33,583 nt of DNA from Gammaproteobacteria bacterium (lineage in GTDB: Bacteria > Pseudomonadota > Gammaproteobacteria > SZUA-21). Position 1 is the stretch's first letter. The number at the start of each line of letters is the position of its first letter. Positions 17,240 to 24,109 of this stretch are shown here, in pieces. The notes beneath the pieces were generated by a model that worked only from the letters and a program-made list of their open reading frames with translations, did not search any database and had not been told where the DNA came from. Made by a program: the position numbers and the translations under genes. The stretch spans positions 1 to 33,583 of the forward strand of contig QILK01000196.1 in NCBI GenBank assembly GCA_003233345.1, read 5' to 3'.

Positions 17240-17292
17240 CCGCTGTACTAAAATAATGCTACTACAAACTAACAACCTTGGGGCATACCTAT

Positions 17293-18735
17293 ATGCGAGT
17301 CGTGCAAGAAGCGCTCACTTTTGATGATGTTTTGTTATTACCGGCACATTCAACTATTTTGCCGAAAGAAGTTTCATTGAAAACACAACTGACACGTGAA
17401 ATTTCATTAAGTATTCCACTGGTCTCGGCAGCCATGGATACCGTGACTGAAGCCCGGCTGGCGATTGCGCTGGCGCAGGAAGGCGGCCTGGGCATCGTTC
17501 ATAAAAACCTGGATTTATCGATACAGGCAAATGAAGTTCTACGTGTGAAACGGTTTGAAAGCGGTGTGATCAAGGATCCGATTACCGTCGCGCCTGACAC
17601 CAGTATCGGCGAGGTCATGAAAATAACCCGTTCAAACAGTATTTCCGGTGTCCCCGTCGTTGATGGGCTGAACCTGGTTGGCATTGTCACCAGCCGGGAT
17701 TTGCGCTTTGAGACCCGAATGAATGAACCGGTCTCGAAAATAATGACACCAAAGGAGCATCTGGTTACCGTAAAAGAAGGGGCCAGTCGCGATGAAGTAC
17801 AAAAACTGCTGCACAAACACCGAATTGAAAAAGTATTAGTGATTAACTCAAATTTTCATTTACGCGGCATGATCACTGTTAAGGATATTCAAAAATCGAC
17901 CGACTATCCCAACGCCTGCAAGGATGAAAGTGGCAGTCTGCGTGTTGGCGCAGCCGTGGGTACCGGTGCTGGAACAGAAGAAAGAATAGAGGCATTAGTC
18001 AATGCCGGTGTTGATGTTATTGTCGTTGATACGGCGCATGGGCACTCACAAGGTGTTCTGGATCGCATCGCCTGGACCAAAAAGCACTATCCCCAACTGC
18101 AGGTGGTGGGTGGCAATATTGCCACGGGGGATGCGGCAAAAGATTTACTGAAAGCCGGTGTGGACGCAGTTAAGGTCGGTATTGGCCCTGGTTCTATTTG
18201 TACAACACGAATAGTCGCAGGCGTTGGTGTCCCGCAAATTACAGCGGTATCCAATGTTTGTAAAGCGCTGGAGGGTAGTGGGGTGCCAGTGATTGCTGAT
18301 GGTGGTATACGCTTTTCGGGTGATATTGCCAAAGCCGTTGCCGCCGGTGCCCATGTCATCATGGTCGGTAGTCTGTTTGCCGGTACCGATGAGGCACCCG
18401 GAGAGGTAGAATTATTTCAGGGCAGATCCTATAAATCTTACCGGGGCATGGGTTCGATCGGGGCGATGAAGCAGGGTTCCAGCGATCGCTACTTTCAGGA
18501 CAGCGCCGATGTCGAAAAGCTGGTTCCCGAAGGCATTGAAGGACGCGTACCTTATAAAGGCCCGTTAATGAATATAGCGCAACAATTGCTCGGCGGATTA
18601 AGGCAAAGTATGGGTTATGTCGGTTGCGCCGATATTGAGGAGATGCGCACAAAGCCCGAGTTTGTTCGAGTCACCTTTGCCGGCATGCGCGAAAGCCACG
18701 TTCATGATGTCACGATTACCAAAGAAGCGTCGTGA
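17293..18735 (+). CDS. guaB: Inosine-5'-monophosphate dehydrogenase
   Basis: Oxidises IMP to XMP with NAD+, the first committed step to GMP. The catalytic barrel is interrupted by two CBS domains (about residues 90-205, region [20 protein letters not shown]). The active-site loop is [10 protein letters not shown] with the catalytic Cys at about residue 303. ATG 17293 ([20 protein letters not shown]) matches the family start; an upstream TTG at 17278 would add five unlikely residues. The protein is 480 residues and ends VTITKEAS, lacking the usual PNYR-type tail. A 22-bp deletion relative to the copy at 21510-21677 shifts the frame at the last codons. Confidence 0.95.
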
Positions 18736-18759
18736 TAGTCATTAATGTAATTTAGTCTA
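18614..18759 (+). repeat. guaB 3'-end direct repeat, left copy (part of the functional gene)
   Basis: 146 bp covering the last 40 or so codons of guaB and 24 bases beyond. It matches 21510-21677 with only about five base differences, apart from a 22-bp gap after GAAGCG in this copy. The match ends in TAATTTAGTCTA on both sides. The sequence after this point is unlike the guaA leader. Confidence 0.9.
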
Positions 18760-18832
18760 CGACTCTGATCTATCTTGAATCCAGCATCAAACGATAGATT
18801 TGATTTAGAGTTTATCAAGAGAGCACGATAAC

Positions 18833-19021
18833 GTGAAACCACTCTGCCAATTATTTAACGTAAATACGAGTAGCTATTATTACCGGATTAATAGGAAAGA
18901 CAATATTAACCTGAAACGAGAGCGACTCAACTGGCCGTTGATATTCACACCGCGAGTCGTGGGTGGAGCCGGTACACGAACGATCGCAGAACAACTGACA
19001 CAGCAAGGTGAAGTATTCTAA
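18833..19021 (+). pseudogene. IS3-family transposase OrfB, N-terminal fragment
   Basis: The frame from GTG 18833 encodes VKPLCQLFNVNTSSYYYR followed by GGAGTRTIAEQLTQQG. This fits the start of IS3-family OrfB: a helix-turn-helix ending in the S-x-YY motif, then the SRG-x-xG-x-RTI-x-x-L-x-x-x-G segment that precedes the DDE domain. The frame closes after 62 codons, so the catalytic core is lost. It is the only transposase trace in the guaB-guaA insert. Confidence 0.65.
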
Positions 19022-19145
19022 CGAATAAGAGGGGGATGACAGTGTCCGCGGATACACCAAGTACTCCTTTGATTTTGTTAATCGATAGGTTAAAGTTAGT
19101 TAATGGTAAGTTCCGATACTATTGAAAAAGTAGAAGATATTCTTA

Positions 19146-19331
19146 ATGTCAACCGCAAAAGATCAAATGAAACAAATACTTGAAGATCAGCCAGATGATA
19201 GCAGCTATGATGAGTTGTTAAAAGAACTGGCGTTCAAAAGAATGATCGACAGAGGGCTTGCAGATGTGGATTCTAAAAATACGATTAGTAATGAGGAGAT
19301 GGATCGTAGAATTAAATCATGGCAAAAATAA
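19146..19331 (+). CDS. Antitoxin of a ParE-type toxin-antitoxin pair
   Basis: A 61-residue acidic protein with ILEDQPDDSSYDELLKELAF and, at the end, ISNEEMDRRIKSW. This is a common small antitoxin family found directly upstream of ParE toxins; the helical DSSYDE-x-x-x-EL stretch and the NEE-x-x-x-RI tail are its marks. It overlaps the toxin gene by 13 bases. The antitoxin looks complete although the toxin is not. Confidence 0.75.
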   Translation: MSTAKDQMKQILEDQPDDSSYDELLKELAFKRMIDRGLADVDSKNTISNEEMDRRIKSWQK

Positions 19332-19537
19332 TATGGACTAGCGAAGCTAGCCAATGGTTAAAAGATATTTTTGATTATATTTCAGAGGACAATTACGAAG
19401 CGGCGAATAATGTGGTTAAGGGTATTTATAAGAAAGCACAAATATTAAAGGAATTTCCAGAAATAGGATATAAGTATAAGCATACGTCGGATAGAGCACT
19501 GATCGGCTGTTCAATAAACCTGGACTTTTGGGGATAG
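19319..19537 (+). pseudogene. ParE-family toxin, 3'-truncated by a repeat
   Basis: From ATG 19319 the product reads MAKIIWTSEASQWLKDIFDY, then KAQILKEFPEIGYKYKHTSDR, the first two thirds of a ParE toxin. After TSDR the family continues with strands that carry the R-x-x-x-YG-x-Y-x-I core; here the frame runs into the 60-bp repeat at 19491-19550 and stops after 72 residues. The missing C-terminal strands contain the gyrase-poisoning surface, so the toxin is probably dead. Confidence 0.75.
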
Positions 19538-19550
19538 GGATTTTATTCTA
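19491..19550 (+). repeat. 60-bp direct repeat, copy 1
   Basis: Begins ATAGAGCACTGATCG and includes TGGACTTTTGGGGATAGGG. It recurs at 21440-21499 with one base change. This copy is joined to the ParE toxin after codon TSDR. Flanks differ, except that both continue with TACCCA within a few bases. It looks like the end of a lost mobile element. Confidence 0.85.
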
Positions 19551-19753
19551 TACCCAAATCTGGACACGTTACCCACTGGGTTATTAGCATCTCCCCGTCT
19601 ATCGTTGCTTACGTATTTGGTGGTATATCAGATAATTTTATTATTAAACTGATTATAGCAAGCATAATTAGAGCATAGAAACTATTTATAGTTTCCATTT
19701 TCTGATTTCTGCATATATAAAAACTATTACTGATATATACGTTAAGTTTCTTA

Positions 19754-19984
19754 TTAACAAGAATCAAGCAGTTGAAAATATCTATCTCTACTCATTAACG
19801 CCGTCCGTAAGCAGGAAGTAATTACCCCTATAGAAACTGGATTATGAGCTGGGATTACAAGCGGCCGTGATATTCCGGGTTTTGTATAAGATCTGTGGCT
19901 ACCTTTTGTCCGCGCATGTTTAAACCCATCTTTTAAAAACACACACTCTAACTTTTTCCAATTAACAGGTGTGATTTTGGGCAT
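19754..19984 (-). CDS. hicA: HicA-family mRNA interferase toxin
   Basis: A 76-residue toxin with the HicA fold: a conserved catalytic His in GSHRSYTKPG, then RPLVIPAHN and a final helix TALMSRDRYFQLLDSC. It cleaves mRNA in the absence of HicB. I start it at ATG 19984 (MPKITPVNW), not at the TTG two codons upstream. It overlaps the end of hicB by 23 bases. Unlike the other toxins here it appears intact, with the catalytic His present. Confidence 0.88.
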   Translation of the reverse strand: MPKITPVNWKKLECVFLKDGFKHARTKGSHRSYTKPGISRPLVIPAHNPVSIGVITSCLRTALMSRDRYFQLLDSC

Positions 19985-20264
19985 TTGCAACTAGGGAAAT
20001 AGGTACGTCCATATAATGATTGCTATAATAACTGTCACTATATTCCGAAACAGAAAACCCGCATTCTTTTAATGATTTTTCGAAGGTCCCGGTTTCTATA
20101 CATGTTTCGAAAAACAACTGAATAGCCTCTAATAAATTATTTTTCGCTTCTTCTTCCGTACTTCCTTGACTGCTTACGTTTAAATCTGGGCATGAGGATA
20201 CATACAAATCTTCTTCCTTATCAATTTCATAAGCAAGTTTTAATGTGATACCTATATGGCGCAT
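19962..20264 (-). CDS. hicB: HicB-family antitoxin
   Basis: A 100-residue antitoxin with the degenerate RNase-H-like HicB domain: YEIDKEEDLYVSSCPDLNVS, GSTEEEAKNNLLEAI and a C-terminal part FFETCIETGT. It neutralises HicA and normally represses the operon. ATG 20264 (MRHIGIT) is preceded by a strong GGAGAAAGG; the ATG at 20279 lies inside that ribosome-binding site and is less likely. The gene order, antitoxin before toxin, is the reverse of the classical hicAB but common. Confidence 0.85.
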   Translation of the reverse strand: MRHIGITLKLAYEIDKEEDLYVSSCPDLNVSSQGSTEEEAKNNLLEAIQLFFETCIETGTFEKSLKECGFSVSEYSDSYYSNHYMDVPISLVANAQNHTC

Positions 20265-20279
20265 TTTACCTTTCTCCAT

Positions 20280-20832
20280 AATACATTTAACGACAAAAAG
20301 AAAAAAAAGTTTAATTTATAAAAGCAAAGTTCTTTCCAAGACGCTAAAAATGCACTAAATTATTTTGAAACATAAATAATAAATCCCAGGTAATCAATAC
20401 TAATAAAGTGTTTTTTTGTGACTAAATTTAACATATCCCCGACTGTCTGTAGGCACCCTACAAGAGTATATGTTACTTAGTAGCAGAATTCGACAAGTAG
20501 TTCCATATAATTAGACCACATATTAACGTTTAAAGTGCAAAGACTATGAGGGGGGAATCGTACATTCCAAAAATCTCTGACAGACCGTTTCAGAAAGCCT
20601 GAACCACTATAAATATGTACAGTATTAGTATGTATGGGATGTATTTTAACCGAAAATTGAATTAAACGGTATAGAGTCGGCTTATCTTGTTTATATTATT
20701 AAGTACACACTTTATTTACTGAAACTTAACACATTGTGTGTCCACTTTTTCTTTATAGTTTTATAATCTTGACTAGCATTAATCACTTTACTGAATCTTT
20801 CAATTAACTATCAAATTTTGAGATAAGTATAT
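20280..20832. other. AT-rich gene-free stretch inside the guaB-guaA island
   Basis: About 550 bases without a plausible coding region on either strand. It must contain the hicBA promoter on its left side (minus strand) and perhaps one for the small membrane protein on its right; a TATAAT at 20762-20767 is the only good hexamer, without a clear -35. No inverted repeats or tRNA-like sequence were noticed. Confidence 0.4.
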
Positions 20833-21105
20833 GTGGACGGAGCTACTTTATTTTCAAATATAATCGGCCATGTGGCATGGCCAATTGCGATTATTACTAT
20901 AACCATTATATTAAGGAAGCCAATAAGTGTTTTAGCTAATCGTATAGAACAAGCAGATTTTAAAAATACAAAAATTATGCTTACTAAATCAGAAAAGTAT
21001 GAAATTGAAGATAAAGCTGCTGAGTCATTTAGTGAAGAAGCTAATCAATTTTATAAAGATATAATTAAAAGTGCAATTGAGTTAGATGTTTTTGCTTTAA
21101 CTTAA
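20833..21105 (+). CDS. Small membrane protein of unknown function
   Basis: A 90-residue protein from GTG 20833. A hydrophobic helix at about residues 8-27 (IIGHVAWPIAIITITIIL) is followed by RKPISVLANRIEQADFKN and an acidic, helical C-terminus. The WP-x-AI...R-x-P-I-x-x-L-x-x-RI layout (gap marks variable residues) is seen in the N-terminus of many uncharacterised single-pass proteins of about 150-200 residues, so this may be a shortened version. An overlapping ATG at 20832 in another frame is closed quickly. Confidence 0.5.
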   Translation: MDGATLFSNIIGHVAWPIAIITITIILRKPISVLANRIEQADFKNTKIMLTKSEKYEIEDKAAESFSEEANQFYKDIIKSAIELDVFALT

Positions 21106-21439
21106 GTTTCAGTAGCTATTTCTCTATTTGTAATATGATAAACTCCTTTGAATAAATAATCGTTTACTATTTTTTGAAACCAAAAAGGAACTTGGCCCAT
21201 ATCACGCAGCAGTACCGAGCTTAAAATTTTATAAGTCTTGCAAATCGAAATAAACCTAGTCGGCCAAGATGCCAGTAACCAACTTGCCTGCCAAGTAAGC
21301 CAATAACGATGGGTCGTTGATAACTTCTTAGGGCATTTGTCGGTCTGAAGGCGGGAATTGGTTGAAAATCGAGTGAACACACAGAAAGAGTGAAGCAAAA
21401 GAGGAGAAAGTCAGTAAGGGTTCACCGTGATTAGGGGAA
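21106..21439. other. Gene-poor end of the island
   Basis: About 330 bases between the small membrane protein and the second copy of the 60-bp repeat. A 98-codon frame exists on the minus strand (21102-21398), but it has no start signal and no recognisable pattern, so I do not call it. It could be debris of a mobile element. Confidence 0.35.
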
Positions 21440-21499
21440 ATAGAGCACTGATCGACTGTTCAATAAACCTGGACTTTTGGGGATAGGGATTTTATTCTA
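21440..21499 (+). repeat. 60-bp direct repeat, copy 2
   Basis: Same 60 bases as 19491-19550 with one change (A for G after GATCG). It ends 10 bases before the duplicated guaB 3' end. It is the last island sequence before the old guaB-guaA junction. Confidence 0.85.
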
Positions 21500-21509
21500 C
21501 TTATACCCA

Positions 21510-21677
21510 GTTATGTCGGTTGCATCGATATTGAGGAGATGCGCACAAAACCGGAGTTTGTTCGAGTCACCTTTGCCGGCATGCGCGAAAGCCACGTTCA
21601 TGATGTCACGATTACCAAAGAAGCGCCGAACTACCGGGTCGAAGTCGTCGTGATAGCCATTAATGTAATTTAGTCTA
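21510..21677 (+). repeat. guaB 3'-end direct repeat, right copy (gene remnant beside guaA)
   Basis: 168 bp that match the end of guaB and the bases after it. Read in the guaB frame it encodes GYVGC at codon level with small changes, the conserved [18 protein letters not shown], then PNYRVE, the usual IMPDH tail, which the functional gene now lacks. The sequence continues without break into the terminator and leader of guaA. This suggests it is the original host copy of the gene end. Confidence 0.88.
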
Positions 21678-21702
21678 TTATTCTGGAGAATTAAGCCAGC
21701 CG

Positions 21703-21735
21703 ATGCGCCGCTTTTAGCGGCGTATTCTATTTCCC
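21703..21735 (+). terminator. Hairpin ahead of guaA, probable old guaB terminator
   Basis: ATGCGCCGCT (21703-21712), a TTT loop and AGCGGCGTAT (21716-21725) form a 10-bp stem with one G-T pair, followed by the moderately T-rich TCTATTTCCC. It would have followed guaB before the insertion and lies 45 bases before guaA. Confidence 0.5.
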
Positions 21736-21769: not shown

Positions 21770-23359
21770 ATGAACACAGCATTAGATACGCAAATTCACC
21801 AGGATCGAATTCTGGTCATAGATTTTGGCTCGCAATATACCCAACTGATTGCCCGTCGAATCCGCGAGGCAGGTGTTTATTGTGAAATTCACAGCTGTGA
21901 AATGACCTCTGAGCAGATTAAGGACTACGCACCCAAAGGCATTGTCTTGTCAGGAGGCCCTGAGTCTGTGACCGGTGACGAGTCGCTTGTGGTCACACCG
22001 GCAATATTTGATTTGGATATTCCTATTCTTGGAATATGTTATGGCATGCAAACCATGGCAGCACAACTCGGTGGACAGGTCGAGCCGTCAACGCACCGGG
22101 AGTTCGGCTATGCGCAAGTCAGAGCTCATGGGCACTGCCAACTATTAAAAGACATCGAGGATCACGCCAGTGCGGAAGGTTATGGTTTGCTTGATGTGTG
22201 GATGAGTCATGGCGACAAGGTCACGGGCTTACCGGATGGGTTTATCAAAATTGCCAGCACAGATACTGCGGCGATCGCCGGAATGGCTGACGAAGCCCGC
22301 CAGTTTTATGGTTTGCAATTTCATCCAGAAGTGACGCATACCCAGCAAGGGCAAAGAATTATCCAGCGTTTTGTAACGTCAATCTGTGGATGTGACGGAT
22401 TGTGGACACCCGCGAATATTATTGATGAGAGTATTGCCCAGATTCGCGAGCAAGTCGGTGATGATAAAGTTTTGCTGGGATTGTCTGGTGGTGTCGATTC
22501 TTCCGTGGTTGCGGCGATGCTGAACAAAGCCATCGGTAAAAAACTGGTTTGTGTGTTTGTTGATAATGGCCTGTTAAGGTTAAACGAGGGCGACCAGGTC
22601 ATGGCCACCTTCGCCGAAAATATGGGTATCAATGTTATCCGGGTTAATGCGGAAGACCGGTTTTTAAACGCGTTGCAAGGTGTTGATGACCCCGAGCAAA
22701 AAAGAAAAATAATCGGCAACACCTTTATCGAGGTGTTTGAGGAAAAAGCAGAAGCACTTGAAAATATCAAATGGTTGGCACAGGGTACGATTTATCCTGA
22801 TGTCATTGAGTCAGCCGGTGCCAAGTCTGGAAAAGCGCACGTCATTAAATCGCATCATAATGTTGGCGGTCTGCCAGAGGATATGACGCTAAAACTGGTG
22901 GAGCCGCTGCGTGAATTGTTTAAAGACGAAGTCAGAAAACTGGGCTTAGAACTGGGATTGCCAAAAGACATGATTAACCGGCATCCATTTCCGGGTCCTG
23001 GTTTGGGTGTGCGTATCCTCGGTGAAGTAAAAAAGGAATATGCAGATATATTGCGGGGTGCGGATGCGATCTTTATTGACGAATTAAGAAAGAATAATTT
23101 GTATGATGCTGTTAGCCAGGCCTTTGCGGTCTTCTTGCCAGTCAAATCGGTCGGGGTTATGGGTGATGGCCGTCGTTATGATTATGTGGTGGCATTAAGA
23201 GCAGTGGAAACGGTGGATTTTATGACGGCCCGCTGGGCGCACCTTCCTTATGATGTTCTTGATATTATTTCCAGGCGCATTATCAATGAAACTCAAGGCA
23301 TTTCCCGAGTTGCTTACGATATATCCGGTAAACCACCGGCGACGATTGAGTGGGAGTAA
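21770..23359 (+). CDS. guaA: GMP synthase (glutamine-hydrolysing)
   Basis: Amidates XMP to GMP, the step after GuaB. The 529-residue protein has an N-terminal class I glutamine amidotransferase with the nucleophile C90 (LGICYGMQ) and the His-Glu pair in QFHPEVTHT. The ATP-pyrophosphatase domain has the P-loop [15 protein letters not shown], and the dimerisation domain ends in PPATIEWE. Start ATG 21770 follows AAAGGCGG. It was presumably transcribed with guaB before the 2.75-kb insertion; it may now depend on its own promoter. Confidence 0.97.
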
Positions 23360-23388
23360 GATTACGGTGGCCGTACAAAGTATGTCAA

Positions 23389-23417
23389 TGGACCGCTGGC
23401 AGTAGAAATACTATAAT
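23389..23417 (+). promoter_or_regulatory. Promoter of the RHH/PIN toxin-antitoxin operon
   Basis: TGGACC (23389-23394), 17 bases, TATAAT (23412-23417), 35 bases before the antitoxin ATG. GGCA and TGCC flank the -10 region and could be part of an autorepressor operator, as is common for RHH antitoxins. Confidence 0.45.
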
Positions 23418-23451
23418 GCCAGGCCTGTATTACTTTAACGTGAGGTATGCC

Positions 23452-23691
23452 ATGAAGCCGTTATCGGTAAAAATACCGGATGATTTATATGCTTTGCTAG
23501 AACAGAAGAGAGAGACTTCTGGAAAAAATCAGTCTGCCATTATTCGCATAGCATTAGAGGATTACTTGGTAAAAAGCGTGGCTGTAAAAACAGGATTAGT
23601 TGGTGAATTAGGGCAGGATTTGTGTGGCAGTATTAGTGCGCCGTCAGATTTATCAACAAATTCAAAGTATATGGACAATTATGGCTGCTAG
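23452..23691 (+). CDS. Ribbon-helix-helix (CopG-type) antitoxin
   Basis: A 79-residue protein. The first 45 residues (MKPLSVKIPDDLYALLEQ, then KNQSAIIRIALEDYL) form a ribbon-helix-helix DNA-binding domain, and the tail would bind a toxin. It should repress its own promoter and block the adjacent PIN-domain toxin. ATG 23452 follows GTGAGG at good distance. The longer frame starting inside guaA is spurious. It overlaps the toxin gene by 11 bases. Confidence 0.8.
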   Translation: MKPLSVKIPDDLYALLEQKRETSGKNQSAIIRIALEDYLVKSVAVKTGLVGELGQDLCGSISAPSDLSTNSKYMDNYGC

Positions 23692-24109
23692 CAAAGAGGT
23701 TTTTATTGTTGATACTGGACCCTTAGTTTCTTTTCTCAACAAGAATGAACCTTACCATGAATGGACAAAAAATCAATTCAACCAAATTTAACCGCCGCTT
23801 TTAACATGTGAATCTGTATTATCCGAAGTCTGTTTCTTAATAGGAAAAACAGGCAGTGATGCGTCAGTGGTTTTGGAATTTTTATCAAGAGGGATGATAT
23901 CCATTGGACTGTCATTCAAGAAAGAATATGAATCAATTAAGCGATTGCTAAAAAAGTATGCGGATGTGCCGATGTCACTGGCAGATGGGGGTATTGTTCG
24001 TTTATCAGAAATTCATTGGACTAGTCATGTTATTACATTTGATAGTGATTTTAGAGTGTATCGTAGAAATGGCCGAAATGTTATTCCAGTTATCATGCCG
24101 CCTAATTGA
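23681..24109 (+). pseudogene. PIN-domain (VapC-like) toxin with a nonsense codon
   Basis: Frame from ATG 23681 to TGA 24107-24109, 142 codons. It shows the PIN-domain pattern: VFIVDTGPLVSFLN with the first acidic residue D11, PPLLTCESVLSEVCFLIGK with the conserved Glu, and DVPMSLADGGIVRL, then HVITFDSDFRVYRR with the last acidic residues. The frame is unbroken except for one TAA at 23789-23791 (codon 37, FNQI-stop-PPLL). A single base change would restore it. The catalytic residues are otherwise all present, so the mutation is recent. Confidence 0.8.

What the first reader, a model, noticed from the sequence alone, without database searches (positions are those of the whole stretch)
18614..21677. 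Accessory island between guaB and guaA bounded by duplicated guaB 3' ends
The last 120 or so coding bases of guaB plus the following bases occur twice, at 18614-18759 and 21510-21677, at about 97 percent identity by eye outside one gap. Everything between is accessory (transposase relic, toxin-antitoxin genes, unknown proteins). The copy beside guaA continues into the guaA leader, so it is the ancestral end. This is the footprint of an element that integrates at the 3' end of a housekeeping gene and brings a replacement end, as known for tRNA genes and guaA. I see no integrase in the insert, so it would be a degraded or mobilised form.
Basis: partly seen in the sequence, partly recalled or inferred. 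Interest (0 to 1): 0.8.

Follow-up and report, generated by a model that had tools for sequence, protein, structure and literature searches.

The report
Rolling-circle transposon scar duplicating guaB end

Summary
The duplication is real: 18614-18759 and 21510-21677 share the guaB 3' end and about 40 bp beyond it (5 substitutions, one 22-bp gap). Relatives have an empty guaB-guaA junction with one guaB end. The integrase reading is not supported. The right-hand copy begins 3 bp after the end of a 180-bp dispersed repeat (21329-21506/21510). Elsewhere in this genome that repeat lies just downstream of ISCR/IS91-family transposase C-termini. It ends in the oriIS motif of ISCR elements from other gammaproteobacteria (window ATAGGGATTTTATTCTACTTATAC; others AAAAGGGCGTTTATTCTTCCTATAC). 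A second ori end (19491-19556) cuts off a ParE toxin. Best reading: a one-ended, ISCR-type rolling-circle insertion into the end of the essential guaB gene that left a 150-170-bp target duplication, which kept guaB readable. The insert has no transposase, no recognisable terIS and no integrase. No similar target duplication was found at about 20 other ori ends in this genome or at 13 ISCR-like elements elsewhere, so it looks like a one-off, probably kept because guaB is needed. The guaB now read has lost the near-invariant C-terminal PNYR; the fragment beside guaA still encodes it. Whether repair or circle integration made the duplication cannot be decided from one sequence.

The parts
17293..18735 (+). 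guaB (IMP dehydrogenase); the last ~120 coding bases are the left copy of the duplication; protein ends ITKEAS*
   Evidence: Pfam IMPDH 3e-162 (the ORF listing start at 17278 is a TTG upstream of this ATG); C-terminus against relatives
18614..18759 (+). left copy of the guaB 3' end plus following bases, with a 22-bp deletion relative to the right copy
18833..19021 (+). relic of an IS3-family orfB (weak match)
   Evidence: NCBIfam transpos_IS3 E=0.004, far below the family's cut-off; no Pfam match
19146..19331 (+). RelB/ParD-like antitoxin (weak match, 61 aa)
   Evidence: NCBIfam NF050811 E=0.075, below cut-off; its place directly before parE
19319..19537 (+). ParE toxin, truncated at 19491 by the first ori-end fragment
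   Evidence: Pfam ParE_toxin 4.7e-7, profile positions 1-50 of 89; the last residues are read from the repeat
19491..19556 (+). ori1: terminal ~66 bp of an ISCR-type oriIS end, same orientation as ori2 and 98% identical to it over 60 bp
19754..19990 (-). HicA toxin
   Evidence: Pfam HicA_toxin 1e-9
19962..20279 (-). HicB-like antitoxin
   Evidence: Pfam HicB_lk_antitox / UPF0150 ~1e-3, below cut-off; paired with hicA
20833..21105 (+). 90-aa ORF of unknown function with a possible N-terminal membrane stretch
   Evidence: no family above cut-off
21329..21506 (+). ori2: 3' noncoding region of an ISCR-type element ending in the oriIS motif (TTTTATTCTACTTATAC); no transposase left in front of it
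   Evidence: dispersed repeat; lies next to ISCR/IS91 transposase C-termini elsewhere; oriIS homology with ISCR elements of other genomes
21510..21677 (+). right copy of the guaB 3' end, with the ancestral-type PNYR codons, continuing into the guaA leader; no longer part of a gene
21770..23359 (+). guaA (GMP synthase)
   Evidence: ORF and sequence; junction compared with relatives

Best explanation
The insert is the scar of an ISCR-type (IS91-related) rolling-circle transposon. Its oriIS end (ori2, ending at 21506) was joined to the chromosome inside the last ~120 bp of guaB (inferred from the junction). Its other end carried passenger DNA (an IS3 relic, a TA pair cut by another ori end, HicBA) and had no proper terIS. 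It was joined to the chromosome about 150-170 bp further on, beyond the guaB stop codon, so the segment between the two joints is now present on both sides. guaB therefore kept a complete, though slightly different, 3' end and the cell survived; the original end became a non-coding fragment before guaA. The source transposase is gone from this site, but ISCR-family transposase fragments and about 20 more ori ends are scattered in the genome. Shown here: the duplication, the ori identity, the coincidence of ori end and duplication edge, the empty site in relatives. Inferred: that the element's insertion caused the duplication, the one-ended joining, and the role of selection on guaB.
For: The edge of the right copy (21510) lies 3 bp after the TATAC end of ori2. 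The repeat that ends there has about 20 other copies ending alike, and in at least five contigs it follows an ISCR/IS91 transposase C-terminus. ISCR_clade_Ia and Zn_Tnp_IS91 match the transposase pieces in loci of the same genome. Elements from other genomes end in the same motif, mostly about 220-270 bp past the transposase stop; the ISCR1 oriIS region is 232 bp (PMC6218425). Relatives have an empty junction and one guaB end. The right copy has Ile where 0 of 65 relatives have it, as expected of a released fragment.
Against: The left end at about 18760 matches no terIS and no other copy in the genome. A long target duplication is not known for IS91/ISCR, and none of the other ori ends tested has one, so the event needs a special repair or recombination step. 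No direct evidence of transposition exists, and the window comes from a fragmented draft genome (274 contigs).
Confidence: 0.68

Rival explanations
1. Same transposon, different route: a rolling-circle product that started at ori2 of an element already lying behind guaB ran leftward through the insert into the guaB end, closed as a circle with ori2 joined to guaB, and integrated by homologous recombination into the guaB of an empty-site chromosome.
For: Gives exactly the same final structure (ori2 joined to the guaB fragment, duplicated ends). Run-through past the terminus is the standard proposal for how ISCR elements carry neighbouring genes (PMC13393415).
Against: Needs a donor with the insert already behind guaB, a circle, and an empty recipient: more steps than a single event. 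No donor form was found in the genomes searched.
Confidence: 0.15
2. A tandem duplication of the guaB end, or of a larger guaB-guaA segment, arose first; the transposon then inserted into the spare copy, with or without an adjacent deletion.
For: Tandem duplications are common, and a spare copy would tolerate insertion into the second guaB end.
Against: A short duplication by itself does not explain why the right copy starts within 4 bp of the ori end; with a large duplication, a deletion must also end beyond the first guaB.
Confidence: 0.1
3. Site-specific integrase-type island at the guaB 3' end that brought a replacement gene end, since degraded.
For: A replacement 3' end and flanking direct repeats are typical of such islands; the ancestral end lies on the far side.
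Against: No recombinase in the insert or contig; the repeat edge coincides with an oriIS end; no guaB-end duplication in 97 relative loci; no literature hit for a guaB site (limited library).
Confidence: 0.05
4. Assembly artefact: the contig joins two strain variants of the guaB end.
For: Draft genome in 274 contigs; many repeat copies lie at contig ends.
Against: The two guaB ends differ from each other and both flanks continue into proper neighbours; the family relative G002 shows the same gene order without insert.
Confidence: 0.05

Closest known systems
ISCR elements (ISCR clade Ia, IS91-like, HUH/Y2 transposase)
   Same: oriIS motif and its distance behind the transposase in the same-genome copies; one-sided carriage of neighbouring genes; transposase fragments of this family in the genome
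   Different: no transposase and no recognisable terIS at this site; passenger genes are toxin-antitoxin and unknown genes; a long target duplication is present
IS91 one-ended transposition
   Same: one defined end (ori), one undefined end, no tyrosine or serine recombinase
   Different: no target duplication is described for IS91 (own knowledge); here 146/168 bp are duplicated
Integrase islands with replacement gene ends (e.g. guaA-targeting islands such as GIsul2, PMC9376610; e14 at icd, own knowledge)
   Same: duplicated 3' gene end flanking accessory DNA, ancestral end on the far side
   Different: no integrase; the duplication edge is set by a transposon end

Membership tests
ISCR / IS91 family | HUH/Y2 transposase gene | tested here: not met
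   No transposase ORF or relic in 18760-21510: the transposase pieces do not match the window. Present only in other contigs.
ISCR / IS91 family | oriIS end with conserved terminal motif behind the transposase | tested here: met
   ori2 matches the 3' regions of same-genome and other-genome ISCR-like elements
ISCR / IS91 family | terIS end | tested here: inconclusive
   Left end near 18760 has no copy in the genome; no terIS model was available
ISCR / IS91 family | hairpin near the ori end | tested here: inconclusive
   Single-strand folding of the terminal 73-81 nt is no better than shuffles
ISCR / IS91 family | no target-site duplication | tested here: not met
   A 146/168-bp duplication flanks this insert; not seen at other ori ends
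Integrase island at a gene 3' end | tyrosine or serine recombinase | tested here: not met
   No family match in insert ORFs; genome-wide Phage_integrase hits lie on other contigs
Integrase island at a gene 3' end | flanking direct repeats with a replacement gene end | tested here: met
Integrase island at a gene 3' end | excised circle | not testable with these tools
   needs PCR or reads

The most novel reading that the evidence does not exclude
Rolling-circle (ISCR-type) transposons can insert with a target duplication of well over 100 bp, by joining their undefined end to a displaced or re-invading target strand, and so can enter the end of an essential gene without killing the cell, leaving a replacement gene end just as integrase islands do.
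Probability: 0.25. Interest if true: 0.6.

Novelty: new variant of a known kind. Interest (0 to 1): 0.36.

Why it matters
ISCR elements are blamed for spreading resistance genes, yet a 2018 paper stated that no ISCR element had been shown to transpose (PMC6218425). A clean natural junction that records both joints of an ISCR-type insertion in a gene that had to stay functional constrains how the undefined end is joined. It is also a caution for island finders: duplicated gene ends around accessory DNA need not mean an integrase.

Tried and rejected
Integrase in the insert or contig: none. tRNA gene as an alternative site: none in the window. Transposase relic in front of ori2 (tblastn with N- and C-terminal pieces): none in the window. 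Similar target duplications at other ori ends of the genome: none, about 13 of them with at least 3 kb of left flank. The same test on 13 ISCR-like elements of other genomes: the only repeats found were second ori copies. Duplicated guaB ends in 97 relative loci: none. Insert or ori DNA on plasmids: no match. Same-genus genome G001: its guaB end was not found and only a weak 30% hit to GuaA, so its junction could not be compared. Single-strand hairpin at the ori end: not better than shuffles. Promoter scan for an outward promoter near ori2 feeding guaA: not above chance.

Full report
Observation. The guaB end is present twice: 18614-18759 as the end of the live gene, and 21510-21677 as a fragment running into the guaA leader. 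Aligned, the two copies differ by 5 substitutions and a 22-bp deletion in the left copy. The deletion removes the PNYR codons, so the live GuaB ends ITKEAS. All relatives for which the C-terminus could be read end in PNYR, PNYH or PNYQ. The right copy still has PNYR but has Ile at a position where 65 relatives never have it, which fits a fragment no longer under selection.

Empty site. In most gammaproteobacterial relatives where both genes lie on the same fragment, guaA begins within a few to about 250 bp of the guaB stop. The family-level relative G002 has a gap of 98 bp. Burkholderiales have gaps of about 1.2-1.4 kb, which I did not examine. None of 97 relative loci has a second guaB end. 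So the 2.9 kb here is an insertion.

What sets the edge. Searching the insert against its own genome showed that 21329-21510 is a dispersed repeat with roughly 20 other copies at 67-93% identity. In contigs C136, C159, C125, C58 and C57 it follows, by about 40-130 bp, the C-terminal coding end of a transposase. That C-terminus matches the NCBIfam model ISCR_clade_Ia (profile positions 443-507 of 509), and N-terminal pieces elsewhere match ISCR_clade_Ia and Zn_Tnp_IS91. Y2_Tnp (PF04986) matches seven places in the genome. In the copies, conserved sequence stops at ...TTATTCTnCTTATA(C), after which the flanks differ.

Independent check of the ori identity. I took ISCR_clade_Ia-like elements from other genomes of the class and read the DNA behind their transposase stops. 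Nine of thirteen end, mostly about 220-270 bp past the stop, in AAAAGGGCGTTTATTCTTCCTATAC or a close variant. The one over the curated cut-off (L170) has GGGCGTTTGAACTTCCTATAC. Two elements in different genomes (L171, L172) are identical through this motif and diverge 2 bp after it, so this is the element's end. The window ori2 reads ATAGGGATTTTATTCTACTTATAC and ends at 21506. The guaB homology begins at 21510. The duplication edge is therefore set by an oriIS end to within 4 bp.

Inside the insert. ori1 (19491-19556) is the last ~66 bp of the same end, 98% identical to ori2 over 60 bp, in the same orientation, and it cuts ParE after about 57 residues. Between ori1 and ori2 lie HicA and a HicB-like gene and a 90-aa ORF of unknown function. 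Left of ori1 are the ParE pair and a weak IS3 orfB relic. There is no transposase piece in front of ori2, so the site holds ori ends and passengers only. No DNA match was found on plasmids.

Mechanism. The simplest account is a one-ended rolling-circle insertion: the ori end was joined inside the guaB end, and the other end, without a terIS, was joined about 150-170 bp downstream, past the stop codon. The stretch between the joints was duplicated, and guaB kept a working end. That ori2 defines one edge is shown; that a single event made both joints is inferred. A rolling-circle product that carried the guaB end and then recombined into an empty-site chromosome would give the same structure. 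A prior tandem duplication explains the ori coincidence less well.

Is it general? About 20 other ori ends in the genome, some 13 of them with at least 3 kb of left flank, have no target duplication; nor do 13 ISCR-like elements in other genomes, several of them with short flanks. So this is not the family's usual behaviour. The natural reason to see it here is selection: an insertion into the end of guaB is kept only if the gene end is restored. This is an argument, not a test.

Assessment. The case is a variant of a known kind: known ends, known passenger carriage, but an unusual long target duplication at a gene assumed essential. Main limits: one draft genome, no same-species strains, no reads.

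Noticed in passing
window 18700-18735: The live GuaB ends ITKEAS* and lacks the C-terminal PNYR found in every relative read here; whether the enzyme is affected is unknown.
   Followed up: partly
window 19491-19556 and 21440-21506: Two ori ends in the same orientation, 98% alike although other copies in the genome are mostly 70-85% alike, so one probably derives from the other; how the fragment came to cut ParE is not explained.
   Followed up: partly
window 23350-24109: A ribbon-helix-helix (CopG-type) gene directly behind guaA, followed by what looks like a broken PIN-type toxin: another toxin-antitoxin remnant beside the locus.
   Followed up: no
G000 (whole genome): The genome holds about 20 ISCR-type ori ends and several transposase fragments, many at contig ends; the family seems to have been active here and is mostly decayed.
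   Followed up: partly
window 21690-21730: The guaA leader holds a G+C-rich inverted repeat (GCGCCGC TTTTA GCGGCGT); G002 has a different hairpin-like repeat at the same place.
   Followed up: no
L082-L119 (Burkholderiales guaB-guaA junctions): Many Burkholderiales have a 1.2-1.4 kb gap of near-constant size between guaB and guaA, probably a conserved gene.
   Followed up: no
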